In this document: one piece after another, positions 11 to 19,728 of the stretch | Layout: the number at the start of each line of letters is the position of its first letter | How positions within the stretch are numbered: the stretch's first letter is position 1 | From: a virus | Direction: 5' to 3' (one strand) | Virus record (IMG/VR): IMGVR_UViG_3300044823_000057 | Span: 1-42,162 of that record | Length of the DNA: 42,162 nt | Position numbers and translations under genes: made by a program | The notes under the pieces: model-generated | Seen by the model: only the letters and a program-made list of their open reading frames with translations | The model's database searches: none | What the model was told of the DNA's origin: nothing

Positions 11-581
11 CAACCTTGGGAATACGGCTTCGGTGCTAATGACCAATGCGGCCAATCAATTCATGGGCATTTTCACGAATGGCACTTTCTATGGAAATGG
101 AAGTGGTCTGTCGGGTTTGTCTGCAACGGCGACCAACGCTATTGGGAGTCTTAATGGCAACGGAACGAACGTGACAATCTACGGAACGCTGACCTCGACG
201 AATTTGACTGCAACCGTTTTCATTACCAACTTCTTTATCCCGAATTACAGGACGAACTTCACGGTTACGCTTCCTGTAACGGCAGATTATTTGATAAGCG
301 AGGGGCTATCCCTTGTCTCAATAATCAATAATCCTTACGGGCTATTGATGGTTTCAAACACTGTTATCCCCACGAAATATGTTGGTGGTCAAAGCTATGC
401 TGGATGCCCGCCATTCTCCCAGACATCTTTAACCAACGGCATTACTTGGTCTATCATTTACACCGGAGATAACAGCATATCTTTTGCTGACACCAATGGT
501 TCGCCAACGACATTCACAGCTATTCAGTTAACAAATGCCTTCAAACTTCAAGCTCGTTACTCATGGGTAAAACATCAATAG
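3..581 (+). CDS. Thr/Asn-rich tail/fibre-like protein, C-terminal part
   Basis: The frame is open from the window edge and reads ATNNLGNTASVLMTNAAN, so this is the 3' part of a longer gene. If the molecule is circular it joins the gene at 40940-42162 to give a protein of 597 residues. It carries a GNGSGLSGL motif, related to the GNGxGLTNL repeats frequent in Verrucomicrobial exported proteins, and a TNVTIYGTLTSTN motif that recurs in the next gene. The last ~110 residues look globular and end in SWVKHQ, much like the WVAVHQ end of the next protein, so the tail modules appear to be shared. A tail-fibre or receptor-binding role is inferred from composition and position. The stop overlaps the next start by 19 bp. 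Confidence 0.7.
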   Translation, partial: ATNNLGNTASVLMTNAANQFMGIFTNGTFYGNGSGLSGLSATATNAIGSLNGNGTNVTIYGTLTSTNLTATVFITNFFIPNYRTNFTVTLPVTADYLISEGLSLVSIINNPYGLLMVSNTVIPTKYVGGQSYAGCPPFSQTSLTNGITWSIIYTGDNSISFADTNGSPTTFTAIQLTNAFKLQARYSWVKHQ

Positions 582-3178
582 CATTAGCGGGCTTACTGTT
601 TCTGGCTGTTAATGGAGTGGCACAAGCAATCCCTTCACCCGCCACAACTAGCCAAGCGACGAACTTGGTGGTTCAGGATGTTTATATGTCTCCGGCGAGG
701 GTTGGGGACTTTTGGTATGATGTTGTAATACCATTTGTTCTTTCCAATAGCGGAAGCGGCATACCAAACACTAATGGTTCTGGGACTAACATTACTGTCT
801 ATGGGATTTTAACCTCCACAAACATAGATGCAAAAATCAAATCCGCTACCAATGGAGTTTTGGTAACGGCATCAAACATTTTTTCCGTCAAAGGAAGTGC
901 GGGTGGAGTTGTCCCTGCTCCAGCTACGACGAGCCAAGCGACGAACTTGGTAACACAGGACGCATATATGTCACCGGCCAGAGTGGGTGATTTCTGGTAT
1001 GATGTTGTAATACCTTACATTGCAGCCAATGGCGGTGGCGGTTCAGGAACGGCAACAAACCTATCTGGTAATGCGCTGGTTCAAGTAACAAACATCTCAC
1101 AATCTGTTGGGGGAGGAGGCGGCGGAACAACACTCTCTAACGGCCTACCAACCATAGACCTTTCCTTTGTCAGTTCACCAGCATTTATTCAAAACACAAA
1201 TCCCTATGCAGTAAATTGTGTTTGGGGTGGGAATGGGATTGTAGTGACGAATGTAGTCTATAATGGTGGGACTACGTTGGTGACAATGGACGGGTTTATC
1301 TTTGGTGGAGCAACAACCAATGCCACGAATAATTTGACGGTGTATTTTAGTGGAACACCACTTCATGTGCAGATGTACCCAGTGGGGATGTTGGGGTTAA
1401 GTGGAACAAATGGATTGCAAGGCATACAGGGAATAGCTGGAAATAATGGAACTAACGGGCTTAATGCTCCAACAGATTTGAACTGGAATAACATCACAAA
1501 TCAACCTGTCATTCCTTCGACGAATGGGTTTGTTGATGCTTCCATTACAAATGCCTTTGTAATAAATAACTCCGGTGTGGCAACAAATTTGACGGTGTTT
1601 GGTAGTGAAACAATCACCAACGCTTCACTTACTATAACCAATGGAAGCCTTACGATCACAGGCACGAATGGAGTGGCAACGAACGCTCCCAATGCTTTAA
1701 CTTTGAAAGGCGGAACAGGTTCGATTGGTTCTTCTGGTCATGGAAATGGATATTTGGGTGGGGGAATTTCAATAACCCTTGGCACTGGTGGTGACGCTTA
1801 CGGCTCATCTCCATTTGGAAACGGCGGTAAAGGTGGTGGTTATATTGTTCAAGCTGGAACAGGCGGTTCTGGAACAGACGGATTAAACGGTGGAGCAGGT
1901 GGAGATTATGTTGTGTATGGAGCTACTGGTGGGTCTGGTAATGCCGGAGGTAAGGGTGGTGGTATAACAAACATTGCTGGCAATGGAGCGAATGGAACGG
2001 GCGCATCTGGAGGTAATGGTGGCGACATAGGGATTCTAGCCGGAACAGGTGGTTCGGCTACTGGAAGTGGTGCTACTGGTGGGACAATAGCAATTCAATC
2101 TGGCACAGGTGGCGTGTCCTCTGGTGGCGGAACTGGTAGTGGTGGAACTATGACTCTTTCGTCTGGAACGGGAGGCGGTTCTCCTGTTAGCGCAAGTCCG
2201 GGCGGAACATTTACATTAAACGGAGGGACTGGCGGCAATACAGCAGGGGTAAATGCGACAGCAGGAAAAGGGGGTTCAGCTTCTTTTAATGGTGGTGCTG
2301 GTGGAATATCTACCAATGGAACTGGAGGTGCAGGTGGAGACTTCTCTTTAACAGGTGGAACTGGTGCGGCTGCTTCAACAAGTGGTAAAACAAGTGGTGC
2401 TGGAGGCTCTTTAACCATAGCAGGAGGCCTCGCTGGTGCATCTACTTCCGGTGCGGCGGCTGATGGTGGTAGTGCAACAATAGCTGCTGGCGACGGCGGC
2501 GCGACTGTGATTGCTGGTTATGCCAGTGGGAAAGGCGGGTCATTGACAATTCGTTCTGGTGTTGGGGGTATAAGTGACCAAGCGAATGGAGGAACAGACA
2601 CGGCTGGTGCAGCAGGTAATTTGGTTATTTATGGAGCTAATGGTGGCTTACACCATGATGGAGCTGGCGGTAACGGATACGGTGGGGCTGGTGGTAGTGT
2701 GTATATCTATGGCGGAACAGGTGGAGCAGGATTGGCTGGTGCTGGTGTGAATGGAAACGCTTTTCTTGCAGTAAAAACAAATAATGTTGTTAGTGGAAGT
2801 GTTGGTGTTGGCACAACAAACCTTACCAGTGGATATGTTTTAGATATTCAAGGCAGCGTGATGATAAGAACCAATTTGGTTGTGACCAATAACATCACAG
2901 CCTACGGCACAAACACAGCGACTTATTTTGTCGGTAATGGTGGTGGGTTGACGAACCTAACGTCTGTAATCCAACAAGGTTCAACGAACGCTGTGGCGTT
3001 GACGGCTTTCACGGCGACATTTGCTCAACCATTTGTAGACACAAACTACACAGCGGTTGCGATTGGGAACGGATTTGCTTTGGCGAGTAGTTATGTTTCA
3101 GCCAAGACAATCAATAGTTGTGTGTTTAATATGACGATTGCAACTGGAGCGATAGACTGGGTGGCTGTTCATCAATAA
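563..3178 (+). CDS. Large glycine-rich secreted adhesin / fibre-like protein
   Basis: 871 residues. Residues 1-22 look like a Sec signal peptide (K-T-S start, hydrophobic core, VAQA cleavage site). A ~35-residue block containing SPARVGDFWYDVVIP occurs twice, 94 residues apart. A short collagen-like Gly-X-Y stretch lies near residues 277-303. Residues ~380-731 are a glycine-rich array of GGTGG/GGAGG units, reminiscent of the polyglycine-II sandwich of phage S16 gp38 adhesin, though homology is not claimed. The C-terminus has the FVGNGGGLTNL motif followed by a small domain ending WVAVHQ. The likely role is host binding or a surface fibre. The signal peptide is odd for a virion protein, because tail proteins normally assemble in the cytoplasm. 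The start ATG lies inside the end of the preceding gene. Confidence 0.75.
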   Translation: MGKTSIALAGLLFLAVNGVAQAIPSPATTSQATNLVVQDVYMSPARVGDFWYDVVIPFVLSNSGSGIPNTNGSGTNITVYGILTSTNIDAKIKSATNGVLVTASNIFSVKGSAGGVVPAPATTSQATNLVTQDAYMSPARVGDFWYDVVIPYIAANGGGGSGTATNLSGNALVQVTNISQSVGGGGGGTTLSNGLPTIDLSFVSSPAFIQNTNPYAVNCVWGGNGIVVTNVVYNGGTTLVTMDGFIFGGATTNATNNLTVYFSGTPLHVQMYPVGMLGLSGTNGLQGIQGIAGNNGTNGLNAPTDLNWNNITNQPVIPSTNGFVDASITNAFVINNSGVATNLTVFGSETITNASLTITNGSLTITGTNGVATNAPNALTLKGGTGSIGSSGHGNGYLGGGISITLGTGGDAYGSSPFGNGGKGGGYIVQAGTGGSGTDGLNGGAGGDYVVYGATGGSGNAGGKGGGITNIAGNGANGTGASGGNGGDIGILAGTGGSATGSGATGGTIAIQSGTGGVSSGGGTGSGGTMTLSSGTGGGSPVSASPGGTFTLNGGTGGNTAGVNATAGKGGSASFNGGAGGISTNGTGGAGGDFSLTGGTGAAASTSGKTSGAGGSLTIAGGLAGASTSGAAADGGSATIAAGDGGATVIAGYASGKGGSLTIRSGVGGISDQANGGTDTAGAAGNLVIYGANGGLHHDGAGGNGYGGAGGSVYIYGGTGGAGLAGAGVNGNAFLAVKTNNVVSGSVGVGTTNLTSGYVLDIQGSVMIRTNLVVTNNITAYGTNTATYFVGNGGGLTNLTSVIQQGSTNAVALTAFTATFAQPFVDTNYTAVAIGNGFALASSYVSAKTINSCVFNMTIATGAIDWVAVHQ
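632..735 (+). repeat. Internal duplication, copy 1
   Basis: Encodes the SPATTSQATNLV...SPARVGDFWYDVVIP block. The second copy lies exactly 282 bp downstream, in the same frame. Third-position differences show it is an old duplication kept for its protein sequence. Confidence 0.85.
914..1017 (+). repeat. Internal duplication, copy 2
   Basis: Second copy of the block at 632-735. It keeps SPARVGDFWYDVVIP exactly and changes flanking residues (VVQDVYM becomes VTQDAYM). Confidence 0.85.
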
Positions 3179-3185
3179 CTATACC

Positions 3186-4349
3186 ATGAAACATCTATTC
3201 ACCATCGCAACCTTGTTGATGACCTTGCAAATGGCAAGGGCAGTTTACACAGAAGATGTTGCCACGAACTTTGTCAATCAAGGGCAGTTGGTGAGTGCGA
3301 CTAATGGATTTGTCACTTCCTCGATTACGAATGGGTTGGCCTCGACGAATTATGTCAGTTCAATAACTAATGGACTCGCCACAACTAGTGTGACGAATGG
3401 CTTGGCTACTACTAACTACGTCAGCAACTATGTCTATTCTGCAACTAATGGCTTTTCTGGGATTTTAACTTCAAATGGATTTGGGACGAATACAACGCTC
3501 ATCACAATTTTCAGTGGCTCAACGAATATCGTAGCAACGACGAATTATACATTTGGAGGTAATGGATTTACTGTCACCAATGCCGGTTCAACTGCTGTCA
3601 ATGGAACATACACCTCTAATAGAACAGGCGGTTATTATTGGGAATATACAAATACATTAGGAATACACTTAAATTGGAACACTTGTGATAATCGTGCATA
3701 TTTTATTTCCAATTACAATTCAGTATTGTATTCGACGACCTCTTTCCCAAATAACTTTACAAATGGTATTCCTCCGATGCCAACAGTAACTAACAGCCCA
3801 TCATCCACAAACATCACCTATGTAACCAATGTTATTGCGGCAGCCACAACCACAAATTTCAGTCCAGCTAGTGGCGGAACATTCATTGGTAATTTCCCTC
3901 AATTATCCACAGGGAACACGAATGATTATTTGCCAGGTAATAATGTAACCTTTGAAACAAATTATCCGAATCAGATTGTTATTGATGCAACCAGTGACAT
4001 CAGTTATTCAACCGTCACAAACAACTGGAACATGGGTCAATTTGTTTATGCTCACTTTGACATAACACCGCCTCAAGTAATTTGCCCGCAGATAATGTTG
4101 CTTTGCATATCCAACAACGCTAACGGAACAACTGCTGGCAGGATGATTTCGCCGACTTTATTCTTTGACGATGCTGATTTTATGCCAATCGGCATTACTT
4201 GGACTCCGACAAATGTTGATGTTTATGGTGACCGACAACTACAAGGGGGAACTGGTTTTCTAACCTCGTCCACTAACGGAGGAAGGGCTTACTCTTATAC
4301 TGAAATGACAAACTATTTCAAGATTCTATGCACTTACAGAAACCAATGA
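3186..4349 (+). CDS. Secreted Thr/Asn-rich fibre-like protein
   Basis: 387 residues. The N-terminus (MKHLFTIATLLMTLQMARA) is a good Sec signal peptide. Residues ~38-100 hold degenerate repeats of the form TNGLA/F-(S/T)TNYVSS, very like repeats in the gene at the right end of the window. The C-terminal ~150 residues look like a globular beta domain. It starts 7 bp after the preceding stop, in the same operon. A surface or receptor-binding function is inferred from context; no named family is recognised. Confidence 0.7.
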   Translation: MKHLFTIATLLMTLQMARAVYTEDVATNFVNQGQLVSATNGFVTSSITNGLASTNYVSSITNGLATTSVTNGLATTNYVSNYVYSATNGFSGILTSNGFGTNTTLITIFSGSTNIVATTNYTFGGNGFTVTNAGSTAVNGTYTSNRTGGYYWEYTNTLGIHLNWNTCDNRAYFISNYNSVLYSTTSFPNNFTNGIPPMPTVTNSPSSTNITYVTNVIAAATTTNFSPASGGTFIGNFPQLSTGNTNDYLPGNNVTFETNYPNQIVIDATSDISYSTVTNNWNMGQFVYAHFDITPPQVICPQIMLLCISNNANGTTAGRMISPTLFFDDADFMPIGITWTPTNVDVYGDRQLQGGTGFLTSSTNGGRAYSYTEMTNYFKILCTYRNQ

Positions 4350-4383
4350 CCACATTAACCAAAATGAACGGGAGGAGGGCATT

Positions 4384-4776
4384 ATGAAGAAACTTTTATT
4401 ACCAATCATTGCCGGACTATCCGGTATGGGCGCGAGCGTGGAGGCTGGCATTCCGTCTGAACCCAATACATGGGCTGAATTATTTCGTCTGCCAGTTACG
4501 GGGTTGCTTGGCTTTGTCTGCATCGCGTGCGTGTATTTCATGTATAAACAGTCGAAGGATAATGCGGAAAGAGTGCTGTCACTGATTGAGGGTGAACGTG
4601 CCGCAACGGAAAAGCGTGTATCCAGCAACGCGCTCATCACAAAAGAATTGGCTGAAAATAACGCACGAGTGGTTAAAGACCTTGCGACGAGTAACGCGCT
4701 GGTGATGAAGGAATCGGCAGAACTCCACGCCGCTGAAATCAGGGTTTTACTGGATGAACTAAAAGGCAGGAAATAA
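4384..4776 (+). CDS. Membrane protein with coiled coil, holin- or i-spanin-like
   Basis: 130 residues. A hydrophobic N-terminus (MKKLLLPIIAGLSGMGASVEAG) is followed by a second hydrophobic segment at ~39-54 (VTGLLGFVCIACVYFMY) and a charged heptad-like helix to the end. A strong Shine-Dalgarno (GGGAGGAGGGC) precedes the ATG. It is first in a cluster of membrane and envelope proteins right after the fibre genes, the usual place for lysis genes. It could be a holin-like protein or an inner-membrane spanin subunit; the sequence does not decide between them. Confidence 0.6.
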   Translation: MKKLLLPIIAGLSGMGASVEAGIPSEPNTWAELFRLPVTGLLGFVCIACVYFMYKQSKDNAERVLSLIEGERAATEKRVSSNALITKELAENNARVVKDLATSNALVMKESAELHAAEIRVLLDELKGRK

Positions 4777-4780
4777 AATT

Positions 4781-5137
4781 ATGACAGCAACAACTGAAAA
4801 GTGGTTTTACGGTCTTGGCAGCGCGACGATTGGCGGTGGTAGTGCTGCAGTCGTGAGCGGCTTTACCGCAATGGGATTTGACCCCGCAAAGTTCAACCTG
4901 ACCAATTCCAGCGGCATCATGCACCTGCTCGGTCTTACTGCAGTCAATTTTGTGTTCAGTGGAATTTTGTCGGCGTTTTTCTACTTGCGGCAATCTCCTT
5001 TACCGCCGGAATCAATCACGGAAACGACAACGACAACAAGTATGGCTAGTGATTCTCAAGGTGGAGTGACCACTGGCATCAGCAAAACAGTCACCACAAC
5101 TCCAGTCAGTCAACCAACAGAAACAACGAAAGAATAA
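4781..5137 (+). CDS. Putative holin-like protein with two membrane segments
   Basis: 118 residues with a glycine-rich hydrophobic segment at ~10-32 (LGSATIGGGSAAVVSGFTAMG), a second at ~47-67 (MHLLGLTAVNFVFSGILSAFF), and a long polar Thr/Ser-rich tail. Size, topology and position, 4 bp after the previous membrane gene, fit a class II-like holin. No family-specific motif is visible. Confidence 0.6.
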   Translation: MTATTEKWFYGLGSATIGGGSAAVVSGFTAMGFDPAKFNLTNSSGIMHLLGLTAVNFVFSGILSAFFYLRQSPLPPESITETTTTTSMASDSQGGVTTGISKTVTTTPVSQPTETTKE

Positions 5138-6245: not shown

Positions 6246-6513
6246 GTGCTGCAATAGCTTCTTCTGGGCTTCGGACAATGGCAACTTGTCCCTTCCATTC
6301 ATTGTGCCAGATGGCTTCTTCTGCCGTTAATGCTTGGGCAGACTTCGGCTGGTCTGGGTTCTTAATTTCCATGAAGTAATTACGGTGAAAAATGCCAGCA
6401 CAAATATCAGGACAACCTTGACCAACAGCAGATAATATCTGAACCGTAGCACCTACTTGGCGCAATGCCTCGACTATCTCGGTCTGGTTCTGGTCTATTT
6501 TACGCGCACGCAT
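6235..6513 (-). CDS. VRR-NUC-like small nuclease
   Basis: 92 residues. The core GQGCPDICAGIFHRNYFMEIK has the Asp (PD) and Glu-x-Lys spacing of PD-(D/E)XK nucleases of the VRR-NUC type. It is followed by the typical LTAEEAIWHNEWKGQVAIVRS ending, where a WH...W and a VVRS strand close the fold. Such stand-alone phage VRR-NUC proteins are thought to cut branched DNA or act in recombination. It is the last gene of the long minus-strand operon and overlaps the plus-strand gene tail-to-tail. Confidence 0.8.
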   Translation of the reverse strand: MRARKIDQNQTEIVEALRQVGATVQILSAVGQGCPDICAGIFHRNYFMEIKNPDQPKSAQALTAEEAIWHNEWKGQVAIVRSPEEAIAALTK

Positions 6514-8364: not shown

Positions 8365-8521
8365 AAGATTCAATTTTCTTCCTATTCGATTTTAGCATTT
8401 CTATGGCTGTGGTCAGTAACGCCTTGCATATCTGCAATTCCTCGCATAGCCCAGTCGCGCCAAGATGCTTTGTCCATGATACTCCACATGAAGAGCATCT
8501 ATTTCTTTTTATTATGTTCAT
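8333..8521 (-). CDS. 62-residue Cys-containing helical protein
   Basis: N-terminal CSSCGVSWTKHLGATGLC suggests a zinc-binding head, then a charged helix. It overlaps the next gene by 32 bp (41 bp if that gene's longer start is used) and the previous one by 23 bp. Unrecognised. Confidence 0.5.
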   Translation of the reverse strand: MNIIKRNRCSSCGVSWTKHLGATGLCEELQICKALLTTAIEMLKSNRKKIESYEKTKAKSRL

Positions 8522-8837
8522 AGAGATATTTTACGTTACGTTCCCATGATTTAGCATTAACGGGACAATAGACTTGAGATAATGCCTTAAAGTAGTCATT
8601 TTGCCGTCCTGCCGCGTCCCAGACGCGCCAGACACGCTTACAGGTCACAATGCACCTATTTCTGGCCTCCGACTCGCCCAGAGGCTTCTGGGAAGCGTGA
8701 TGCACCCCATATAGCCAATTTGGGTTATTCCCTTCTTCCACTCTAATAGACGAAGCGAGCCTATCAAAATCCATCGCCTGAACATTGAGGCAGAGCAGGA
8801 GTAAAACAGCACTACCAAATGTAAAGTATGGTTTCAT
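8499..8837 (-). CDS. Secreted protein, candidate lysozyme-like
   Basis: 112 residues with a Sec signal peptide (MKPYFTFGSAVLLLLCLNVQA). The mature protein has IRVEEGNNPNWLYGVHH, where a Glu sits where lysozyme-like folds often have their catalytic acid. It then has three Cys residues and a WERNVKYLYEH ending seen in some small phage proteins thought to degrade peptidoglycan. No other endolysin candidate is visible in the window, which makes this one worth noting, but the assignment is a guess from short motifs. Confidence 0.5.
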   Translation of the reverse strand: MKPYFTFGSAVLLLLCLNVQAMDFDRLASSIRVEEGNNPNWLYGVHHASQKPLGESEARNRCIVTCKRVWRVWDAAGRQNDYFKALSQVYCPVNAKSWERNVKYLYEHNKKK

Positions 8838-8849
8838 TTCAATATACGA

Positions 8850-9062
8850 CTAGCATTCGATACAGGCTTGGTCTGCCCATCCTGCCCCGCCGTCTTTTAC
8901 CCACACGAGATAGTGACCGTTCTCGGTTGGTGGTTCAGAGATTGGTTTCCAGTCCAGCGTTGCCATCGAACAACTCACTTGAGCCAACAGCGAGTGTTCC
9001 TGCTGGTTTCGAGCTTGGTTATTATTTTTACGGTTCATTTTGTTTCGGAGCGTTGCCGCCAC
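8850..9062 (-). CDS. Small protein with WKPISEPP..NGHYLVWV motif
   Basis: The C-terminal part WKPISEPPTENGHYLVWV resembles the short beta domain of DUF551-like phage proteins. The start is uncertain: GTG at 9062, or an internal ATG at 9038 or 8960. If the last is right the product is only ~36 residues and may be truncated. Confidence 0.4.
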   Translation of the reverse strand: MAATLRNKMNRKNNNQARNQQEHSLLAQVSCSMATLDWKPISEPPTENGHYLVWVKDGGAGWADQACIEC

Positions 9063-9094
9063 TCGCTGCGGCTTGGCTCAAATGTTAGCCTTAA

Positions 9095-9328
9095 TCATGG
9101 GTATTGATAGGTTGAGGGACGGCCTTTTGTTCTGTGCAATTCACCCCTCTTGGCCAACTGACTTAATGCCATAGTGGCCTGTTGCCAAGTTAAGGGAGGC
9201 ACAAGCGTTTTCCATGTAAGGCTTTTACGTTTCTTTGCCATGAGCCTGACAAAATTCCATATTGTACCACGCTTCCTAGCTGTTTTATGTCCAGCAGGAA
9301 TATGGTCGTATGTGAGGAATAGGTTCAT
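9095..9328 (-). CDS. Winged-helix-like small protein
   Basis: 77 residues. The C-terminal half (LTWQQATMALSQLAKRGELHRTKGRPSTYQYP) reads as a recognition helix followed by a wing, as in small winged-helix DNA-binding proteins. It is coupled to the gene upstream by ATGA. Function unknown; a transcriptional or replication accessory role is plausible. Confidence 0.55.
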   Translation of the reverse strand: MNLFLTYDHIPAGHKTARKRGTIWNFVRLMAKKRKSLTWKTLVPPLTWQQATMALSQLAKRGELHRTKGRPSTYQYP

Positions 9329-9546
9329 GCTAATTTATAGCTGTAAACTCTCCTGCCATTATCAGAGAATCCTACCCAATGCTTTTCAATAGCCACACCA
9401 TTTTGACGTAGCTCTGAAATGTCGCTACTGGCGCGGGTGCTTTGGCAAACATTGTTTAACTCAATTGGTGTTATTCCGTTAGTGCCAGCAGCCCGTAACG
9501 CTCCCATCATCTTTTGCAGCCTATTACTTGTCATTGGTGATTTCAT
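9325..9546 (-). CDS. Helix-turn-helix domain phage protein
   Basis: 73 residues of the common small phage type LQKMMGALRAAGTNGITPIELN...ASSDISELRQNGVAIEK...GRRVYSYKLA. An initial helix is followed by a helix-turn-helix and a beta wing. Members are widespread in phage early operons and presumed DNA-binding. ATGA overlaps occur on both sides. Confidence 0.7.
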   Translation of the reverse strand: MKSPMTSNRLQKMMGALRAAGTNGITPIELNNVCQSTRASSDISELRQNGVAIEKHWVGFSDNGRRVYSYKLA

Positions 9547-9926
9547 GCTATTATCCTCGTTATTACCTTGTTTGCTTGGTTCGGTTTCTCAATCAAATCA
9601 TCTACCATTGTCGAATCAAATATGTTGTCCTTACACTTGAATATCTCCACAGCCTGACAGAGCTTACGAATGATATTCTCAAATCTCTGATGCGCTCGTT
9701 GCTTAATCTCCGCTCCGCCATCTCTGACGCTAATCCACCACCCACACACGCTATACAGAGCATGGATCAAGTCTCTCCTAGACCGTTCATAAATAGCGCA
9801 CCTATCACACGCAACATGTTTTAGCCAATAGTCAACTTGGTCTTGGCTCAATACACCGTTATCCTCGTATTGGACTACGCCTTCACGTTGGCAAAACTTA
9901 CAGTGATATTGAAGTTTAAGGGTCAT
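9543..9926 (-). CDS. Hypothetical protein with zinc knuckles
   Basis: 127 residues. Two CxxC pairs (CKFC at ~9-12, CDRC at ~40-43) flank a short insert and could bind zinc. The rest is helical and charged. It is directly downstream of, and coupled to, the DUF1376-like gene, so a role in replication is possible. Not recognised. Confidence 0.55.
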   Translation of the reverse strand: MTLKLQYHCKFCQREGVVQYEDNGVLSQDQVDYWLKHVACDRCAIYERSRRDLIHALYSVCGWWISVRDGGAEIKQRAHQRFENIIRKLCQAVEIFKCKDNIFDSTMVDDLIEKPNQANKVITRIIA

Positions 9927-10678
9927 GCTATTACGCCGAGCAATTCTCGGAGTTCTTTCTGCCTAGCCCTCAAATTCTCTAACCTAATCCTCGATGGTGA
10001 ATCCTTATCGTAATCGCTTAATCTGCTAGAGTAATTACCTAGCTCTTTTACTACACGATTTAACTCCTGCTCCATTGATATGCGATTGGGGGGTTGAAGG
10101 GAAGGCGCGGCAGTTGTTCCACTGGCTATTTGCCGGTCAACTTTATTCAGCCAGTTCACGAAGAATCTTTGACTCAAAACCCTGCCTTTATTTTGTGGCA
10201 ATCCTATCCAGACTTTAGCCTTTTCAAATTCTCGTTTTACATCAATTCCAATGTAGGCCGGTGACTTGGATAAGTCCTCCAGAAAGTCCTCTGATTTAGT
10301 GTTAGCTTTTGTGACTGATTGTGCGGTTCTTTCCGTTCTGGCTGTTGACGTTTGTGCTTGTCGCTTAATCAAATCTTCCTGTTTCTTTAGGTAGTTTGCT
10401 CGCGCCCTTTTCTGATGCCACTTGCCATCTTCTAGGCAGAAGAATTTGTCGTTGTCGAAAATCATACTCTTTAGACGCATCCAATTATGGAGTTCGCAGT
10501 TGCATAGCTCCCGAAGTCCCGCGTCATCGTCCGGCAAACCCTCGACATGAGAATGAGTCCAGTAGAAAGTAAGACAACGGATATACTTCCACTTTTCATC
10601 GTCGTTGAACATTCCGGTAGCATTGGCAAACGCCACTGGGTCAAAATCCATTACTGGAATTGGCAAGGGTTCACTCAT
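9923..10678 (-). CDS. DUF1376-like replication-associated protein
   Basis: 251 residues. The N-terminal ~95 residues match the DUF1376 style: a helix with YIRCLTFYWTHSHVEGLPDDD, then LRELCNCELHNWMRLKSMI and GKWHQKRARANY. In phages this domain heads replication-initiator-like proteins (analogous to lambda O). The C-terminal part has a second helical domain and a charged coiled-coil end. It is probably the phage's replication or loading factor; no helicase or polymerase is encoded nearby. Confidence 0.65.
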   Translation of the reverse strand: MSEPLPIPVMDFDPVAFANATGMFNDDEKWKYIRCLTFYWTHSHVEGLPDDDAGLRELCNCELHNWMRLKSMIFDNDKFFCLEDGKWHQKRARANYLKKQEDLIKRQAQTSTARTERTAQSVTKANTKSEDFLEDLSKSPAYIGIDVKREFEKAKVWIGLPQNKGRVLSQRFFVNWLNKVDRQIASGTTAAPSLQPPNRISMEQELNRVVKELGNYSSRLSDYDKDSPSRIRLENLRARQKELRELLGVIA

Positions 10679-11034
10679 AGCACCTTTGTTCTGTGGACAA
10701 GGTTAAGCGGTGGTTGGAACGCCTTAATGAACCATTTTTCCTTTTCGCGCAAATCAAACTCTGGACATGGAAGATAAAAAACCTTGTAGTAATTATACTC
10801 CATGAATTTTTCCGGAACTTCCCAATCGCGCAATGTTCTTTTAACTGGATGCCCACTAAGTCTGTGCCTTAGATTTGTGGACATTCCGACGTATAAAACC
10901 CTGTATTTTATTTTTCGTTTTAAGTTGCTAAAAAAGACGTGGACGAAAACATAAATGGCAGGAACTTCTGGAACTAGTAAATAAATTTCTTTCCAATTTT
11001 CGGGGTTAAATCTTTTTCTTCTGGTTGTTTTCAT
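10675..11034 (-). CDS. GIY-YIG domain nuclease
   Basis: 119 residues. AIYVFV and YRVLYVGMSTNLRHRLSGH carry the GIY and YIG strand motifs (here AIY and YVG) with the downstream Arg of the first helix. REKEKWFIKAFQPPLN supplies the catalytic Glu helix and the N-x-x-L-type ending. This is a stand-alone single-domain form, as in homing-type or structure-specific phage nucleases. It is coupled to the replication gene by ATGA. Confidence 0.75.
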   Translation of the reverse strand: MKTTRRKRFNPENWKEIYLLVPEVPAIYVFVHVFFSNLKRKIKYRVLYVGMSTNLRHRLSGHPVKRTLRDWEVPEKFMEYNYYKVFYLPCPEFDLREKEKWFIKAFQPPLNLVHRTKVL

Positions 11035-11150
11035 CGCTCAATCCTTAAATGAAAGCCGCCCGCTCCGTGTGTCACAGTGCGCGGAAAGCGCATAGACTCC
11101 GAAATGGAGTTCGGAGCGAACGGCAGATTGGTTGAACTGTGACACGACAT
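11031..11150 (-). CDS. 39-codon ORF over a structured element (uncertain)
   Basis: ATG at 11150 to TGA at 11031-11033, coupled to the GIY-YIG start by ATGA. A second frame, GTG 11145 to 11038, is also open (35 residues). Both span the palindromic element at 11055-11145. The DNA may therefore be constrained by structure rather than by protein, or it may be a leader peptide. Confidence 0.3.
   Translation of the reverse strand: MSCHSSTNLPFAPNSISESMRFPRTVTHGAGGFHLRIER
11055..11145. other. Compact multi-hairpin element (possible RNA switch)
   Basis: An outer inverted repeat GTGTCACAGT (11069-11078) / ACTGTGACAC (11136-11145) encloses two hairpins: GCGC-ggaaa-GCGC (11079-11091) and CTCCGAA-atggag-TTCGGAG (97-103 / 110-116 after 11000). 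A mutually exclusive pairing also exists: GCCG+CGCTCCG (11055-11067) with CGGAGCG+CGGC (11112-11124). Two alternative folds in under 100 bp look like a regulatory switch or attenuator, or a replication or recombination site. Confidence 0.55.
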
Positions 11151-11165
11151 AATCCTAATCATTTT

Positions 11166-11384
11166 TTACTCATTTGTCAAACTATTTCTCACTACCACAG
11201 GCACTTTTATCCACAACTGGTCTGGGAATTGCACCCTATCCACTTCAATACTTACGCATTGCCAAAGTTGATATAGCTCTGGTTTGATGTTGTCTATTGG
11301 GTCTGCAACAAACCAAGCAACCTGTGCGCTAGGCTCATAATCTTCACTTGGCAACTCGTCTAAAAGTGGAATCGTTTTTAACAC
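11166..11384 (-). CDS. 72-residue hypothetical protein
   Basis: Acidic N-terminus (LLDELPSEDYEP) then a beta-rich region (AQVAWFVADPI, VSIEVDRVQFPDQLWIKVPVVV). It starts 4 bp after the upstream gene. Its product ends just before the structured element. Unrecognised. Confidence 0.55.
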   Translation of the reverse strand: MLKTIPLLDELPSEDYEPSAQVAWFVADPIDNIKPELYQLWQCVSIEVDRVQFPDQLWIKVPVVVRNSLTNE

Positions 11385-11388
11385 ATTA

Positions 11389-11886
11389 TTATCCTATGGT
11401 TTGGGGTGAGGGCTGCATTGCGGAGTCTATGGTTTGGCGTAAACTAACGGTTTCATCTTCGAGGTTCAAACAGATATCCATGAATCTATCTCCGCCTGAT
11501 TTCTCACAAAGCCAATCCAACCTGTCCTTGTCTTTTTCCAACTCCGCAATCTGTTTCTTTAGGGTGTCGCGGTCTAGCTTGAAGTTATCTATTACTTCAC
11601 GACGGTGATTTAGTGCTTCTTTCAACTTCTCATTCTCGGCGCGGAGTTGGTCAACGTGTCTTGCAACTGATTCACTACAAGCCCAAGCTGCTCCATTAAA
11701 TACAATTGTTGCGTCGAGTTTTTCCAGTAATGGGTCGGCTACTTCGTGAAGGGAGCGGAGGATTGACTTAAATACTTGTGCTTTTCTTGTTTCAAAATCT
11801 GATACCTCTGGCATCATTAGCCATAAGCCAGCATACCTTTCAGCAACCTTTTCTAGTTCTGGTTTTGATGGTTTGTTAGTGGTCAT
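11389..11886 (-). CDS. Coiled-coil hypothetical protein
   Basis: 165 residues. Residues ~75-125 form a long charged coiled coil (VDQLRAENEKLKEAL, LKKQIAELEKDKDRLDWL). The motif DRLDWLCEKSGG...DICL is common near the C-termini of small phage early proteins. ATGA overlap with the gene upstream. Role unknown. Confidence 0.6.
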   Translation of the reverse strand: MTTNKPSKPELEKVAERYAGLWLMMPEVSDFETRKAQVFKSILRSLHEVADPLLEKLDATIVFNGAAWACSESVARHVDQLRAENEKLKEALNHRREVIDNFKLDRDTLKKQIAELEKDKDRLDWLCEKSGGDRFMDICLNLEDETVSLRQTIDSAMQPSPQTIG

Positions 11887-12170
11887 GGTGTTCCTTTCGG
11901 CTGTAATGTTTCCGAGGCAATAACTCGGTGCATTTCATTTCCGTCTTTATTGTATTGGTCGCCACGCAAGTGCCTAATCAGTTCGAGTCCGGCTTTGAAC
12001 ATATCGCGTTCCTTCTGGCACAGGATAAGTTCTCTTTCAAGTTGACGGGCGAAGTCGCGCATTTTTGAGAACGAATAAGCAGAACTTCCTTCTGGCAAGA
12101 CCGCATCAGAGCGAGGCGTCGCTATTGGTTCTTCTGTCGCACCATGACATTTTGATAATAGTTCGGGCAT
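11883..12170 (-). CDS. Hypothetical early protein next to the transposon
   Basis: 95 residues with a SFSKMRDFARQLERELILCQKERDMFKAGLELIRHLR helix, typical of short phage coiled-coil proteins. Its ATG begins at 12170, the first base of the target duplication, so the transposon has replaced everything upstream of the start codon, including its ribosome site and coupling to the previous gene. Expression may now be altered. Confidence 0.6.
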   Translation of the reverse strand: MPELLSKCHGATEEPIATPRSDAVLPEGSSAYSFSKMRDFARQLERELILCQKERDMFKAGLELIRHLRGDQYNKDGNEMHRVIASETLQPKGTP

Positions 12171-12177
12171 AAATTTA
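12170..12177. repeat. Target-site duplication, left copy
   Basis: TAAATTTA immediately outside the left inverted repeat. The identical octamer lies outside the right repeat at 15747-15754. Eight bases is the usual duplication length for IS1595-family elements. The octamer is itself palindromic. Confidence 0.85.
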
Positions 12178-12191
12178 GGTGATTATCCCTT
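12178..12191 (+). repeat. Left terminal inverted repeat
   Basis: GGTGATTATCCCTT, identical over 14 bp to the complement of 15733-15746; the sequences diverge inside that point. Confidence 0.9.
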
Positions 12192-12206
12192 CAAGCCACT
12201 TACCGC

Positions 12207-14579
12207 GTGGTTTCTGATTATGCTATTTTTATTGGCGTGAGTCAATACACCGCTAGAAAAGAAGCATCTGTTACGCAGTCAATCCTGACGCAACTAGGAA
12301 ATCTGGGTTGGATTGTTGACGAGCGAAGCCCTGATTGCGACGTGCTTCAGCAGCGGGTAAAAACTTCCGAGCAACGTAAAAAACTTGGCGGTAAAATTCC
12401 CGATTTCACACTTTACCAGCGCGGGACAAACAGACTTCTTGGTGTTATCGAGGCTAAAAGGCCGAATGAACCTTTGGCTAAAGCCCTCAAGGATGCAGAA
12501 GAAAAATATGCCAAGCCCCTGCAAATCCCACTCGTTTTTGCCTACAACGATACTTATGTCGAAACGCGCTATCTTGCCAATGGCCGACCGTTGAAATTGG
12601 ACGGTGAAGATATTCGCCAGTTTGTAGATCAATACACCGCGCTCCGGTTTGTAAATGAAGGCGCGGAAATTTTATCCGCGCCGACTCATGTTCAATACTC
12701 GCGCCAGCAACTCATCGCCATTTTTAGGCGTGCTGCAAATCTTTTGCGTGAAGCTGGATTGCAGGCCGGATTGGAACGGTTCGCGGCATTTTCGGACATT
12801 CTTTTTCTGAAATTGATGGATGAAGTTTGCGAATTAAAATTGCACGCACACAAAGAGCCGCCGATTGAAGAACATCTGCGCTGGTCGCACTTCAAAGACA
12901 TGGCCGCGCCCGCGCTTCATACCTATCTCAAGGATGTTGTGTGGAAGGAAATGAATAAAAAATATGGATCAATTTTTGGTGAGTCATTGCAAATCGGAAA
13001 ACCGGAGATAATAAAGGAAATTGTGGAAGGGCTTTCCGGGTTGAATTTGACCGCCGCCGACACAGATGTAAAAGGGGATGCGTTTGAATACTTTTTGAAG
13101 AACGCCTATCAGGGATTAAGCATCAAGGATTTGGGTGAGTATTTCACGCCGCGCAACATTGTTCGCACGATGGTCAGCATGGTTAATCCGCAAATCGGTG
13201 AAAAGATTTACGACCCATTTTGCGGCACGGGCGGATTTTTAATTGAATCTTTCAAGTTCATCCAAAACCGAATTAAGCCGACTCCAAAATTGATGGAGAC
13301 ACTTGAAAACGACACCGTTTGGGGTTCGGAAATTACCGTCAATGCCCGCGTTGCCAAGATGAACATGATTTTATTTGGCGACGGGCACAGTAACATTGAA
13401 AAATGGGACAGCTTGGAACATCCGCGCAAGGGACAATTTGATATTGTATTGACCAATCCCCCTTATTCAGTCCCAACGCGCTATGGGAATCTTTACCCAG
13501 TTGACAGTTCAAACGGTGACGCGGTATGCGCCATACATTGCTTTGACAGTTTGAACGCCACCGGACGCGCCGCGATTCTGGTCAAGGAAGATTTTTTAAG
13601 CAAGGGCGGCACGATTGGAAAAGTGCGCGATTACATTTTGAAAAATTCTAAAAATTTTACCGTCACTTCCCTGCCGAGAAATTTATTTGCTCCTTACACG
13701 CCGACAAAAACCAGCATCATCTATTTTGAAAAGGCCGGGAAAAGGCCGACCGTTTTCTTTTTTGTCGTGAAGCATGTCGGGCATACGCTTGGCACTCGAA
13801 AAAGGAGCATCAAATCAAATGACCTGCCATTGATGCTGGACGCTTTTAACGAGCAAAAAACATCGCCGGAAATTACTTCCTGCATTGTGCCGCGCCCGAT
13901 TGTGGAAAAGACGGAAAATTCATTGTGGGTTTATGATTACATAGAAGTCATTCCGCCGTCACCATATCCGATGGAATACATGGGCGGTTTGATTGAAAGA
14001 AGCGGCGAACGAATTTTGTTATCAGAAAATTCCAATGATGATGTGAAGATGTTAGGCGTAAGCAATCAATTCGGAATTTTTGAAAATGAAGAATTTTCTG
14101 GCGACGAAAATACACCATGCCAAAAGGTTCGCACTGGCGATTTAGTCTATAACCCTCACCGCGTCAATGTTGGTTCTGTCGGATTGGTAACGGATGAATT
14201 TGATGGCGGCTTGGTGAGCGGTGTTTATGTTATTTTCCGTTCCAAAGACACACGCACTCCATCGCCTTATTTGCTGGCCTTGATGAAATGCGGGGCTTAC
14301 AAAAAAGTCATTGAAGCCTATGACACTAAAAGCGGCGCGGTGAGACCAAACTTGACCTATGATCAATTATGCCGGATAAAAATTCCAATTCTACCAGAGG
14401 ACACCATGAAAATTTTCATCAAAAAACAAAAAACGATTGATACGGCAAAAGGCGATTTAGCCAGACAGATTGACGATGCTTCAGATTATTTGGACAGCAT
14501 CACGCGGGAAGAAAAAAATCCGAATCACCGGAAAGATTTTGACAGCTTGCTTTCACTGGCCGCGCCTAAAGCTACCTAG
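12207..14579 (+). CDS. Single-chain restriction-modification enzyme (R-M-S fusion)
   Basis: 790 residues. N-terminal PD-(D/E)XK nuclease of the HsdR-N type: Asp66 in KIPDFTLY, Glu82-Ala-Lys84 in GVIEAKRP. A helical connector (~165-300) leads to a gamma-class N6-adenine methylase with motif I DPFCGTGG (336-343) and motif IV NPPY (417-420), preceded by LGEYFTPRNIV. A type I HsdS-like target-recognition region (~560-790) ends in a helix. No helicase motor is present, so this is type IIG-like rather than classical type I. One protein could methylate and cut. The GTG start at 12207 is uncertain; GTG 12237 is an alternative. It is the cargo of the IS1595-type transposon and runs against the phage operon. 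Confidence 0.85.
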   Translation: MVSDYAIFIGVSQYTARKEASVTQSILTQLGNLGWIVDERSPDCDVLQQRVKTSEQRKKLGGKIPDFTLYQRGTNRLLGVIEAKRPNEPLAKALKDAEEKYAKPLQIPLVFAYNDTYVETRYLANGRPLKLDGEDIRQFVDQYTALRFVNEGAEILSAPTHVQYSRQQLIAIFRRAANLLREAGLQAGLERFAAFSDILFLKLMDEVCELKLHAHKEPPIEEHLRWSHFKDMAAPALHTYLKDVVWKEMNKKYGSIFGESLQIGKPEIIKEIVEGLSGLNLTAADTDVKGDAFEYFLKNAYQGLSIKDLGEYFTPRNIVRTMVSMVNPQIGEKIYDPFCGTGGFLIESFKFIQNRIKPTPKLMETLENDTVWGSEITVNARVAKMNMILFGDGHSNIEKWDSLEHPRKGQFDIVLTNPPYSVPTRYGNLYPVDSSNGDAVCAIHCFDSLNATGRAAILVKEDFLSKGGTIGKVRDYILKNSKNFTVTSLPRNLFAPYTPTKTSIIYFEKAGKRPTVFFFVVKHVGHTLGTRKRSIKSNDLPLMLDAFNEQKTSPEITSCIVPRPIVEKTENSLWVYDYIEVIPPSPYPMEYMGGLIERSGERILLSENSNDDVKMLGVSNQFGIFENEEFSGDENTPCQKVRTGDLVYNPHRVNVGSVGLVTDEFDGGLVSGVYVIFRSKDTRTPSPYLLALMKCGAYKKVIEAYDTKSGAVRPNLTYDQLCRIKIPILPEDTMKIFIKKQKTIDTAKGDLARQIDDASDYLDSITREEKNPNHRKDFDSLLSLAAPKAT

Positions 14580-14587
14580 ACCAACCG

Positions 14588-14857
14588 CTATCCCCTGCAA
14601 ATTTTGACAATTCTGTTTATGTCTTTCGGGTCATGCAGGGCATCGCGCAACATCACGGCAAACCCGTCGTTTCCCGCGTCGCCAGTTTCCAGCATATCAG
14701 CAATGAATTGAATTGCATCGGGTTCGTGCCGGTGATTTGAGATAAGCGCGACCAACTGCTTTTTGTTGTAATAACCAGCCTTGATTCCGAAACGCGGAGC
14801 ATCGCCTTCGTGTTCGAGTTCGGGAATCAGCAACACAGCATCGCTTGGAATTTTCAT
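14588..14857 (-). CDS. 89-residue transposon-associated protein
   Basis: Reads MKIPSDAVLLIPELEHEGDA then a helical region with LISNHRHEPDAIQFIADML and DPKDINRIVKICRG. It overlaps the transposase stop by ATGA, so it is translated with the transposase. It lies inside the element's ends and converges with the R-M gene 8 bp away. It could be a transposition accessory, a regulator or part of the R-M cargo. I do not recognise the family. Confidence 0.55.
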   Translation of the reverse strand: MKIPSDAVLLIPELEHEGDAPRFGIKAGYYNKKQLVALISNHRHEPDAIQFIADMLETGDAGNDGFAVMLRDALHDPKDINRIVKICRG

Positions 14858-15699
14858 ACTTTTGCCAGCATAGTATCAAACATCGCATTGTCACTGTTTC
14901 GCTCATTATATCTAAAGGCAAATTCATCAACATATTTTTGAAGATGCTTTTTTGAGACCCAAACGTGCGTTCCCCTGATGCTATTTTTCAACCGAGACCA
15001 AAATCCTTCAATCGAATTTGTGTGGGCATTACCGCGAACATATTCCCGCGCCGCGTGACCAACGCGAAGGTGTTTGTATCCTTCGCGGCGGAGCGGGTTG
15101 TAGCTCCACAGTTCATCTGTGCAAACTGTCGCGCCCTTTTCGACGTTCGCCAGAATGTTTGGCATGACTGTTACGGTTTTAACATTCTCCGCAACTTTCG
15201 CTTGCACGTTACCGCCGCGCTCTAAAATACCAATAACCGGCGTTTTGCCTTCCGCTCCGCGCCCGCGCTTGCCGCGCCGAACACCGCCGACATAAGTTTC
15301 ATCGGCTTCAATAACGCCTTTCAGCTTTTCCCCATTTCCAGCCATGAGCAACCGGATTTGATGCGCCATGCGCCAAGCGGTTTTGTAAGTCACTCCAAGT
15401 TGACGCTCCAATTCTTTTGCCGATACGCCGGAGCGCGTAGCCGTCATTAGATACATGGCATAGAACCAATGTTTGAGCGGCGTGGTCGTTTTCTCAAACG
15501 GTGTTCCTTGCATCGGATAGATTTGATACCCGCACCATTGGCAGACATAACAGGCGCGAGTCGAAACGCGGTGAAATTTTGTTTGGTGTTCGCAAGACGG
15601 GCAGGATTTTAGATGCCCAAACCGGCGTTGGAAAAGGGCTTCCAAACAAGCTTCATTATCAGGGTATTGCTCGTGAAACTCTTTAATTGTAAATTTCAT
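14854..15699 (-). CDS. IS1595-family (ISXO2-like) transposase
   Basis: 281 residues. The N-terminal zinc ribbon has CPSC (33-36) and CQWC (53-56), as in ISXO2-type transposases. HTH-like residues follow (SAKELERQLGVTYKTAWRM). The DDE core shows Asp133 in EADETYVGG, Asp195 in VCTDELWSY and Glu231 in TNSIEGFWSRLK. The length matches the family (~280-310). The start is 34 bp inside the right inverted repeat. It appears intact. Confidence 0.9.
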   Translation of the reverse strand: MKFTIKEFHEQYPDNEACLEALFQRRFGHLKSCPSCEHQTKFHRVSTRACYVCQWCGYQIYPMQGTPFEKTTTPLKHWFYAMYLMTATRSGVSAKELERQLGVTYKTAWRMAHQIRLLMAGNGEKLKGVIEADETYVGGVRRGKRGRGAEGKTPVIGILERGGNVQAKVAENVKTVTVMPNILANVEKGATVCTDELWSYNPLRREGYKHLRVGHAAREYVRGNAHTNSIEGFWSRLKNSIRGTHVWVSKKHLQKYVDEFAFRYNERNSDNAMFDTMLAKV

Positions 15700-15732
15700 G
15701 CCCCAAATATACCATTTCGACTAAATGTTGTC

Positions 15733-15746
15733 AAGGGATAATCACC
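15733..15746 (-). repeat. Right terminal inverted repeat
   Basis: AAGGGATAATCACC, the complement of the left repeat at 12178-12191. Confidence 0.9.
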
Positions 15747-15754
15747 TAAATTTA
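15747..15754. repeat. Target-site duplication, right copy
   Basis: TAAATTTA, identical to 12170-12177. Its last three bases (TTA) form the stop codon of the lipoprotein gene at 15752, so the insertion did not remove any of that gene. Confidence 0.85.
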
Positions 15755-16102
15755 TTTAATATAATTGGTTATTTTGTATTCTTGAACCAAAGTTATTTGC
15801 GTGCGTAAATCCTCTCTTTTAAGGAAGGAAATTCTTTCTGTTACTATACGCTTTGCCGATTCAAGGTTTGGTATATTGTTTGACAATACCAACCACTCAT
15901 TGCCGTGGCCACCCCACCAATAAAGATATTGTTCTACAAAATAAGTTCCGTCGCCCCTACTTGAAATCCTCATATCACCAAGTGTGGGTAAATTTGTCGT
16001 GGTAGTCGCTGCGCTATTTGTTTTAGTTGGTATGTTAAGTTGGGTTTGTTCGCTGCACCCGACTAACACCAGCGACAGGGATAGAATTAGTAATGGTTTC
16101 AT
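15752..16102 (-). CDS. Lipoprotein, unknown function
   Basis: 116 residues. A type II signal sequence ends in the lipobox LVGC (Cys16), followed by a Thr/Asn-rich linker and a compact domain with GDGTYFVEQYLYWW and a charged C-terminal helix. The stop codon is supplied by the target duplication of the transposon. ATGA overlaps the secreted-protein gene upstream. An exported envelope protein in an early operon suggests a role in host-surface modification or exclusion. Confidence 0.65.
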   Translation of the reverse strand: MKPLLILSLSLVLVGCSEQTQLNIPTKTNSAATTTTNLPTLGDMRISSRGDGTYFVEQYLYWWGGHGNEWLVLSNNIPNLESAKRIVTERISFLKREDLRTQITLVQEYKITNYIK

Positions 16103-19119: not shown

Positions 19120-19728
19120 TTAGTGGTTGAAAATGCTTCGACCATTCCATGTCCCACTGGGGACATCCTGTTTGTAAAGTTTCTTTAATGGTTTAGCTGC
19201 GGTCTGGCAAACCTTCTCGTATTCTGCCCAAGCGGTCTGGCAAACCTTCTCGTATTCTGCCAAAGCGGTCTGGCAAACCTTCTCGTATTCTGCCAAAGCG
19301 GGCTGGCAAACCTTCTCGTATTCTGCCAAAGCGGGCTGGCAAACCTTCTCGTATTCTGCCAAAGCGGTCTGGCGAACCTTCTCGTATTCTGCCCAAGCGG
19401 TCTGGCAAACCTTCTCGTATTCTGCCCAAGCGGTCTGGCAAACCTTCTCGTATTCTGCCAAAGTGGTCTGGCGAACCTTCTCGTATTCTGCCAAAGCGGG
19501 CTGGAATTTTTTATAATCCCGAACAGGCCGAAAATTATTTAGCCTTTTTACTCTTTCCGAACTCGCCTTGTTTTTGAGTATAAACTGAATCCTGTTTTCT
19601 GCCGGTTCAGTCAATGGCTCACAAAATTCTTCATGGTGACAGCACCAAGCGAATTTAGCTTCGGGATATTTTGCGAAAGCAGCGCGGCAACGCTTGGCCG
19701 CGGCTTCAATTTGTTTTTCTGTGTTCAT
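19120..19728 (-). CDS. Protein with nine 11-residue repeats
   Basis: 202 residues. Residues 1-75 form a globular part with FAWCCHHEEFCEPLTEP. Residues 76-174 are nine uninterrupted copies of QxALAEYEKVC/R (alternating T/P and L/W). The tail is short and basic. An 11-residue period with hydrophobics at fixed points fits a right-handed (hendecad) coiled coil or helical rod. The Cys at each repeat end is unusual. Function unknown; the repeat number is probably variable between relatives. Confidence 0.75.
   Translation of the reverse strand: MNTEKQIEAAAKRCRAAFAKYPEAKFAWCCHHEEFCEPLTEPAENRIQFILKNKASSERVKRLNNFRPVRDYKKFQPALAEYEKVRQTTLAEYEKVCQTAWAEYEKVCQTAWAEYEKVRQTALAEYEKVCQPALAEYEKVCQPALAEYEKVCQTALAEYEKVCQTAWAEYEKVCQTAAKPLKKLYKQDVPSGTWNGRSIFNH
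19207..19503 (-). repeat. 33-bp tandem repeat, nine copies
   Basis: Nine in-phase 33-bp units, each coding for QxxxAEYEKVx. Copies differ by one to three bases, mostly at the L/W, T/P and C/R codons. No spacers, so it is not a CRISPR array. Confidence 0.9.

What the first reader, a model, noticed from the sequence alone, without database searches (positions are those of the whole stretch)
12178..15746. IS1595-type transposon carrying a single-chain restriction-modification enzyme inside a phage
Seen: perfect 14-bp inverted repeats, a perfect 8-bp target duplication, an intact zinc-ribbon DDE transposase, and a 790-residue nuclease-methylase-specificity fusion between the same ends. Known: IS1595-family elements make 8-bp duplications, and some carry passenger genes. 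Inference: a mobile, self-sufficient R-M enzyme hops between replicons. On a phage it could protect the lysogen-like or infected cell from rivals, or pre-methylate phage DNA. This would be a route by which defence genes move onto viruses.
Basis: partly seen in the sequence, partly recalled or inferred. Interest (0 to 1): 0.85.

Follow-up and report, generated by a model that had tools for sequence, protein, structure and literature searches.

The report
Jumping gene carrying a one-protein restriction system
A small mobile DNA element sitting in a bacterial virus carries, next to its own jumping enzyme, a gene for a single protein that should both mark and cut DNA; related elements in many bacteria carry such bacterial defence enzymes again and again, so these elements look like a delivery vehicle for them, which has also reached viruses.

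Summary
Window 12178-15746 (3,569 bp) is a complete IS1595-family transposon: perfect 14-bp inverted ends, a perfect 8-bp duplication (TAAATTTA), an intact zinc-ribbon DDE transposase, and an intact single-chain nuclease + N6-adenine methylase + half-specificity enzyme. The virus is a tailed phage; the insertion lies exactly between two phage genes; a syntenic relative lacks it. The 89-aa gene is not a conserved part.

It is not a one-off. R-M homologues lie with an IS1595 transposase inside shared ends in Spirochaetia, Gammaproteobacteria, Burkholderiales and Rhodothermaceae, and in a second phage contig. In surveys by transposase alone, 15 of 41 elements with ends and duplications carried DNA methylase/R-M genes, mostly compact nuclease-methylase fusions, and 14 of 21 in one clade. 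One genome holds three near-identical copies of such an element with three different duplications: recent transposition as a unit. Transposase tree and cargo disagree (at least 7 forced changes), so cargo is exchanged. In the window's own clade R-M cargo is rare.

Known: IS1595 'transporter ISs' with passengers. Apparently undescribed in the library held here: R-M enzymes as their recurrent cargo, and on phages. Cleavage, methylation and benefit to the phage are inferred.

The parts
12170..12177 (.). left copy of the 8-bp target duplication TAAATTTA; its outermost base is the first base of the start codon of the 95-aa phage gene 11883-12170 (-)
   Evidence: sequence; frames
12178..12191 (.). 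left terminal inverted repeat GGTGATTATCCCTT (cargo side)
12207..14579 (+). single-chain restriction-modification enzyme, 790-aa frame; homologous start GTG 12237 (780 aa): PD-(D/E)XK nuclease (about residues 9-120 of the 780-aa form), helical linker and N6-adenine methylase (about 155-540), one target-recognition domain plus long C-terminal helices (about 575-775)
14588..14857 (-). 89-aa gene overlapping the transposase stop codon (ATGA); extra passenger without known function, not conserved in relatives
14854..15699 (-). IS1595-family DDE transposase, 281 aa, intact
15706..15734 (-). transposase promoter-like site TTGACA-17-TATATT (11 of 12, TG before -10); the -35 begins inside the right end
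   Evidence: one good, well-placed site; the total number of sites in the region is near chance
15733..15746 (.). right terminal inverted repeat (transposase side), perfect complement of the left one
15747..15754 (.). right copy of TAAATTTA; contains the stop codon of the phage gene 15752-16102 (-)
   Evidence: frames

Best explanation
This is an IS1595-family transporter insertion sequence (an IS with a passenger gene) whose passenger is a self-sufficient single-chain restriction-modification enzyme of Type IIG/IIC architecture. The transposase recognises the 14-bp ends, moves everything between them as one unit into AT-rich 8-bp targets and duplicates the target (shown by ends and duplications here and by three near-identical copies of a sister R-M element in one genome). 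Here it landed between two genes of a phage early operon. The passenger should methylate adenine at a site chosen by its single recognition domain, probably as a dimer through its C-terminal helices, and cut unmethylated DNA with its N-terminal nuclease (inferred from intact motifs and fold). Because both activities sit on one polypeptide, one gene of 2.3 kb moves a whole R-M system, which fits the small cargo slot of an IS. Such elements recur across phyla and exchange R-M cargo. On a phage the likely effects are exclusion of competing phages, methylation of the phage's own DNA, or simply persistence of the element (inferred, not tested).
For: Ends, duplication and intact genes. Same layout inside own ends and perfect 8-bp duplications: L008 309-5137 (AAAATTTA; transposase interrupted by an IS110-type element), L030, L040, L042, L164 1660-5208 (AAAATAAA; 787-aa N6_Mtase + Methylase_S enzyme convergent to a transposase of the same clade). 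Three copies of a 2,530-bp IS1595 + methylase-HNH element in genome G323, 0 mismatches between two and one C-run indel in the third, duplications AAATTAAA, AAAATTTA, TTATTTTA. 41 elements picked by transposase only: 15 with DNA methylase/R-M cargo. Cargo exchange: transposases 73-85% identical (L113, L118, L119, L120) carry different R-M types; the transposase tree needs 10 changes of the R-M label, at least 7 forced by well-supported branches; window and L003 R-M are 58% identical but their transposases 33%. Predicted structure mean pLDDT 82, pTM 0.72; nearest solved structures Type I M subunits, then BsaXI, BpuSI, DrdV. Related phage G021, 81-84% in terminase, portal and capsid, lacks both genes.
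Against: No base-exact empty site was found (the flanking accessory genes are not conserved in relatives). No second copy of this very element was found, so its own present activity is not shown. The nuclease domain scores below Pfam's cut-off by sequence and rests on the invariant PD...EAK motif and the fold. Enzyme activity is unproven. The survey was partly in genomes and one family chosen because they hold such elements, and in the window's own transposase clade only 1 of 19 transposase-selected elements carries R-M.
Confidence: 0.86

Rival explanations
1. The R-M gene is an ordinary phage accessory gene, and an IS1595 element with ends on both sides flanks it only by coincidence; the R-M did not arrive by transposition.
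For: The same R-M family sits on at least 34 sequenced phage records, mostly of Acinetobacter, beside the repressor in the one examined and without any transposase, and on Rickettsia chromosomes without IS1595.
Against: One pair of ends and one perfect duplication enclose both genes here and in L008, L030, L040, L042, L164; a sister R-M element has copies at three sites; the syntenic relative phage has neither gene.
Confidence: 0.04
2. The passenger no longer restricts: it is a solitary methylase (or a dead enzyme) kept to shield the element or phage from restriction in new hosts.
For: Nuclease domain weak by HMM. Phages carry many solitary methylases and very few complete R-M systems (PMC4176335). 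No clear ribosome-binding site in front of GTG 12237 (sequence).
Against: The nuclease motif P55-D56...E72-x-K74 is invariant in 28 homologues including the window, and the N-terminal domain is modelled with confidence. Other IS1595 R-M elements with quite different nucleases (HNH, Mrr-like, NgoFVII-like) keep both halves, which points to selection for the pair.
Confidence: 0.25
3. The element acts as an addiction module: the R-M gene serves the transposon or phage by harming cells that lose it, not by defence.
For: Known behaviour of R-M systems on mobile elements (PMC4176335, PMC3031569); R-M cargo recurs on elements with no other visible benefit for the host.
Against: Post-segregational killing depends on separate decay of methylase and nuclease; a single chain makes this less likely. 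Not tested.
Confidence: 0.2
4. Chimeric assembly: the transposon belongs to a bacterium and was joined to the phage contig by the assembler.
For: The window is an IMG/VR record with no second copy to compare.
Against: Perfect duplication on both sides with phage genes on either side, G+C like the surroundings (0.43-0.49 against 0.41-0.50), and a second phage with the sister element L002 (duplication AATCCTTT).
Confidence: 0.04

Closest known systems
IS1595-family transporter insertion sequences (tIS; Siguier, Gagnevin and Chandler 2009; MTnSag1 and tISCpe8)
   Same: IS1595 transposase, terminal inverted repeats, 8-bp duplications, passenger gene inside the ends (PMC5704250; PMC3129680; PMC8496243)
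   Different: Passenger is a complete one-protein R-M system; the passengers named in the papers read are lincomycin resistance and transcription regulators for IS1595 and methyltransferases for another family (PMC5704250, PMC11891212). The 2009 paper itself is not in the library held, so its own list could not be checked.
Type IIG / IIC single-chain restriction-modification enzymes (BpuSI, DrdV; also Type IIB BsaXI)
   Same: N-terminal PD-(D/E)XK nuclease, adenine methylase, recognition domain; BsaXI, BpuSI and DrdV are among the fold matches
   Different: Methylase and recognition part are closest to Type I M and S subunits; one half-S fused to the same chain, no separate S subunit as in BsaXI; 780 aa, shorter than these
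R-M homologues of Acinetobacter siphophages (phage 5W, YMC/09/02/B1251 and others)
   Same: Full-length homologue, 33% identical over 93%, on phages
   Different: Beside the repressor in phage 5W, no IS1595 transposase or shared ends
Composite IS-flanked R-M systems and IS-linked movement of PaeR7I
   Same: R-M genes moved by insertion sequences (PMC3031569)
   Different: There the R-M lies between two separate ISs or is carried by cointegration; here it lies within one IS between its own ends

Membership tests
IS1595 insertion-sequence family | DDE transposase of the IS1595/ISXO2 type | tested here: met
   Pfam 2.8e-43, NCBIfam 227 bits against cut-off 75
IS1595 insertion-sequence family | N-terminal zinc ribbon | tested here: met
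   Zn_ribbon_IS1595 6e-07, 29.8 bits against 25.4
IS1595 insertion-sequence family | 8-bp target duplication and terminal inverted repeats | tested here: met
IS1595 insertion-sequence family | match of the ends to a named ISfinder subgroup | not testable with these tools
   ISfinder is not held; ends match L002, L008, L079 and plasmid elements with related transposases
Transporter IS (tIS) | passenger gene unrelated to transposition inside the same ends | tested here: met
   R-M gene at 12207-14579 within 12178-15746
Type IIG/IIC R-M enzyme | nuclease, methylase and specificity domains on one chain | tested here: met
Type IIG/IIC R-M enzyme | intact nuclease and methylase catalytic residues | tested here: met
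   PD...EAK, DPFCGTGGF and NPPY present; key residues invariant in 28 homologues
Type IIG/IIC R-M enzyme | methylates and cleaves at a defined site | not testable with these tools
   needs enzyme assay or long-read methylome
Type I R-M system | HsdR translocase (helicase) subunit | tested here: not met
   no helicase domain in the protein and no room for another gene in the element
Type IIB R-M (BcgI/BsaXI) | separate S subunit | tested here: not met
   half-S is fused; no second S gene in the element
MADS defence system | MAD2 methylase above curated cut-off, with partner genes | tested here: not met
   116.8 bits against a cut-off of 720; no partner genes in the element

The most novel reading that the evidence does not exclude
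IS1595-family transposons are a general vehicle for compact R-M enzymes: several transposase lineages have a cargo slot into which single-chain nuclease-methylase fusions of unrelated design (HsdR-N/HsdM/half-S, methylase-HNH, methylase-Mrr) and short two-gene Type II systems are repeatedly loaded and exchanged, in Pseudomonadota, Rhodothermaceae, Spirochaetia, Flavobacteriaceae and phages. The phage copies show this traffic crossing from bacterial genomes onto viruses.
Probability: 0.65. Interest if true: 0.75.

Novelty: new variant of a known kind. Interest (0 to 1): 0.62.

Why it matters
Complete R-M systems move between genomes by routes that are mostly unclear, and phages encode very few of them (PMC4176335). 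Simple insertion sequences that carry a whole R-M system as one gene give a concrete, testable route for their spread between chromosomes, plasmids and phages, and would help explain why single-chain systems are over-represented on mobile elements. The multi-copy element in G323 makes transposition and the resulting methylome change directly measurable.

Tried and rejected
Exact empty-site 20-mer in IMG/VR: none. Relatives of the flanking 95-aa gene: none. Relatives of the 89-aa gene: none in plasmid or phage records, three partial ones in viral contigs away from IS1595. A duplication for the L003 element: not found although its ends are a 25-bp perfect repeat. L005 is split over two contigs, so its ends could not be closed. 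Two 'elements' in L126 and the weak hits in L095, L172, L174, L188 were discarded as chance pairings. Rickettsia R-M loci L006 and L007 have no IS1595 and no shared ends. The first transposase tree used a wrong frame for L176 and was replaced. Papers: no description of R-M as IS1595 cargo found in ten searches, but subscription papers, the 2009 IS1595 paper among them, are not held.
Full report
What is there. The window is a whole virus record of 42,162 bases with terminase, portal, major head and tape-measure genes, so a tailed phage. At 12178-15746 lies a 3,569-bp element with 14 perfectly matching terminal bases, GGTGATTATCCCTT, and the 8-bp duplication TAAATTTA on both sides. In 200 shuffles of the flanks no such pairing of ends and duplication arose. 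Joining the flanks shows that the insertion fell exactly between the stop codon of one gene (15752-16102, -) and the start codon of the next (11883-12170, -) in a leftward operon.

The transposase. The leftward gene 14854-15699 is an intact IS1595-family transposase with its zinc ribbon. A good promoter-like site, TTGACA-17-TATATT, starts inside the right end, and TTGAC(A) is part of the transposase-side end in sister elements as well (L002, L008, L079).

The passenger. The rightward gene 12207-14579 encodes 790 residues; homologues begin at GTG 12237. It has an HsdR-type N-terminal nuclease motif PD...EAK, a Type I-like N6-adenine methylase and a half specificity subunit. In an alignment of 28 homologues P55, D56, E72, K74, the methylase motif around D326 and N407 are invariant. 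The AlphaFold2 model has mean pLDDT 82 and pTM 0.72; nearest solved folds are Type I M subunits, then the Type II enzymes BsaXI, BpuSI and DrdV. There is no translocase domain. It is a single-chain R-M enzyme by sequence and fold; activity is not shown.

Not a coincidence: sister elements. A scan of one genome each for 84,980 species with the R-M protein gave 38 loci; a transposase of the IS1595 family lies beside the R-M gene in nine of them and in one further phage contig, L003. Ends and perfect duplications enclose both genes in L008 (Spirochaetia, 309-5137, AAAATTTA), L030 (Gammaproteobacteria, 8939-12278, CTTAGGTT), L040 (Rhodothermaceae, 8986-12251, CTTCCCAT) and L042 (Burkholderiales, 8446-11853, AAGCGAAT). 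L038 has matching ends at 6345 and at its contig end; L003 has 25-bp perfect ends but no duplication. L008 has the window's layout, with the transposase interrupted by an IS110-type element.

A class of elements. I then collected IS1595 elements by transposase alone and asked what lies between ends with perfect duplications. In the clade whose ends mostly read GGGAATTATA, 14 of 21 elements carry DNA methylase or R-M genes: methylase-HNH fusions (L083, frameshifted; L111; L119; L182), methylases with a Mrr-like or similar C-terminal nuclease (L113, L118; L183 and L186 judged by sequence only), nuclease-methylase plus S gene (L084; L190), two-gene Type II systems (L097 with a C5 methylase and an NgoFVII-like nuclease; L120 with a nuclease matching a PADLOC Type II model at 4e-86), and methylase-like genes with an unassigned partner (L105, L128). 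In the window's own clade only L164 of 19 elements selected this way carries R-M (a 787-aa enzyme with N6_Mtase and Methylase_S domains, convergent to the transposase, duplication AAAATAAA); the others carry single genes of other kinds, such as trypsin-like proteases, membrane proteins and, on another phage, a PAPS-reductase-like protein (L002), or none (L180). With one element outside both clades (L159), that is 15 of 41. Part of this sample comes from genomes and a family chosen for holding such elements, so the share is not a population estimate; the L164, L182, L183, L186 and L190 elements come from class-wide samples chosen by transposase similarity only.

Movement as a unit. Genome G323 holds three copies of a 2,530-bp element (transposase + methylase-HNH fusion): two without a mismatch, the third with one extra C in a C run, at three sites with different perfect duplications AAATTAAA, AAAATTTA and TTATTTTA. 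This shows recent transposition of an R-M-bearing IS1595 element. The duplications resemble that of the window (TAAATTTA), suggesting a preference for AT-rich targets.

Exchange of cargo. Transposases of L113, L118, L119 and L120 are 73-85% identical but carry three kinds of R-M cargo. The window and L003 R-M enzymes are 58% identical while their transposases are 33% identical and lie in different orientation. A tree of 46 transposases needs ten changes of the R-M label, at least seven forced by well-supported branches. The L003 R-M gene is 82% identical in DNA to Rickettsia chromosomal genes over the R-M gene alone.

On phages. Of 50,697 phage records only two, unannotated, hold a relative of the transposase, so IS1595 elements of this kind on phages are rare. 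The R-M family itself is on at least 34 phage records by another route, beside the repressor in the Acinetobacter phage examined. A relative of the window phage, G021, with 81-84% identity in terminase, portal and capsid, lacks both R-M and transposase; the flanking small genes differ, so no base-exact empty site is available.

How it likely works. Shown by sequence: unit, ends, duplication, intact genes; shown in a sister element: movement as a unit. Inferred: the transposase moves the element by the replicative, circle-forming route proposed for the family (PMC5704250); the passenger methylates one adenine site and cleaves unmodified DNA; on the phage it excludes competitors, marks phage DNA, or only persists. 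The R-M gene is transcribed against its phage neighbours, so it must rely on a promoter of its own.

What is known. IS1595 elements with passengers are the origin of the 'transporter IS' concept, with regulators and antibiotic resistance as named passengers, and methyltransferases for another family. R-M genes on transposons in general, flanked by ISs, and single-chain systems being over-represented on mobile elements, are known. R-M enzymes as recurrent IS1595 cargo, and such elements on phages, were not found in the papers held; the 2009 paper on the family could not be read.

Noticed in passing
L002 7953-9725 (phage contig IMGVR_UViG_3300049070_000060): A second phage carries an element with nearly the same ends and a 57% identical transposase, duplication AATCCTTT; its convergent cargo is a PAPS-reductase-like protein matching the PADLOC SspD model (7e-15), possibly another DNA-modification gene.
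   Followed up: partly
L182 3586-6115, L191 3830-6359 (reverse strand), L192 3495-6025 (genome G323): Three near-identical copies of a transposase + methylase-HNH element at three sites with three different duplications.
   Followed up: yes
L113, L118, L119, L120, L111, L105, L128 (Rhodothermaceae): IS1595 elements with perfect or near-perfect 20-bp ends whose cargo is methylase-nuclease fusions or short Type II systems of several unrelated kinds.
   Followed up: yes
window 14588-14857: 89-aa gene overlapping the transposase stop codon; it shares the motif AIQFIADML with small proteins in viral contigs L153-L155; function unknown.
   Followed up: partly
window 15699-15734: The -10 of the transposase promoter ends about 7 bases before its ATG, which would give a leaderless transcript.
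   Followed up: no
window 12217-12245: Promoter-like site (TTGACT-17-CATAAT) pointing out of the left end towards the phage genes cut off by the insertion; it could restore their transcription, but the number of such sites in the region is near chance.
   Followed up: no
L003 9036-12316: Second phage contig with a transposase directly upstream of an R-M gene that is 82% identical in DNA to chromosomal Rickettsia genes; 25-bp perfect ends, no duplication.
   Followed up: partly
window 19120-19728: 202-aa early protein with about ten tandem copies of an 11-residue repeat (AEYEKVCQTAL/W).
   Followed up: no
window 563-3178: 871-aa tail-region protein with a long glycine-rich stretch.
   Followed up: no
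L166 3106-4134, L176 3915-5075: Elements of the window's transposase clade in Alphaproteobacteria carry trypsin-like peptidases as single convergent cargo.
   Followed up: no
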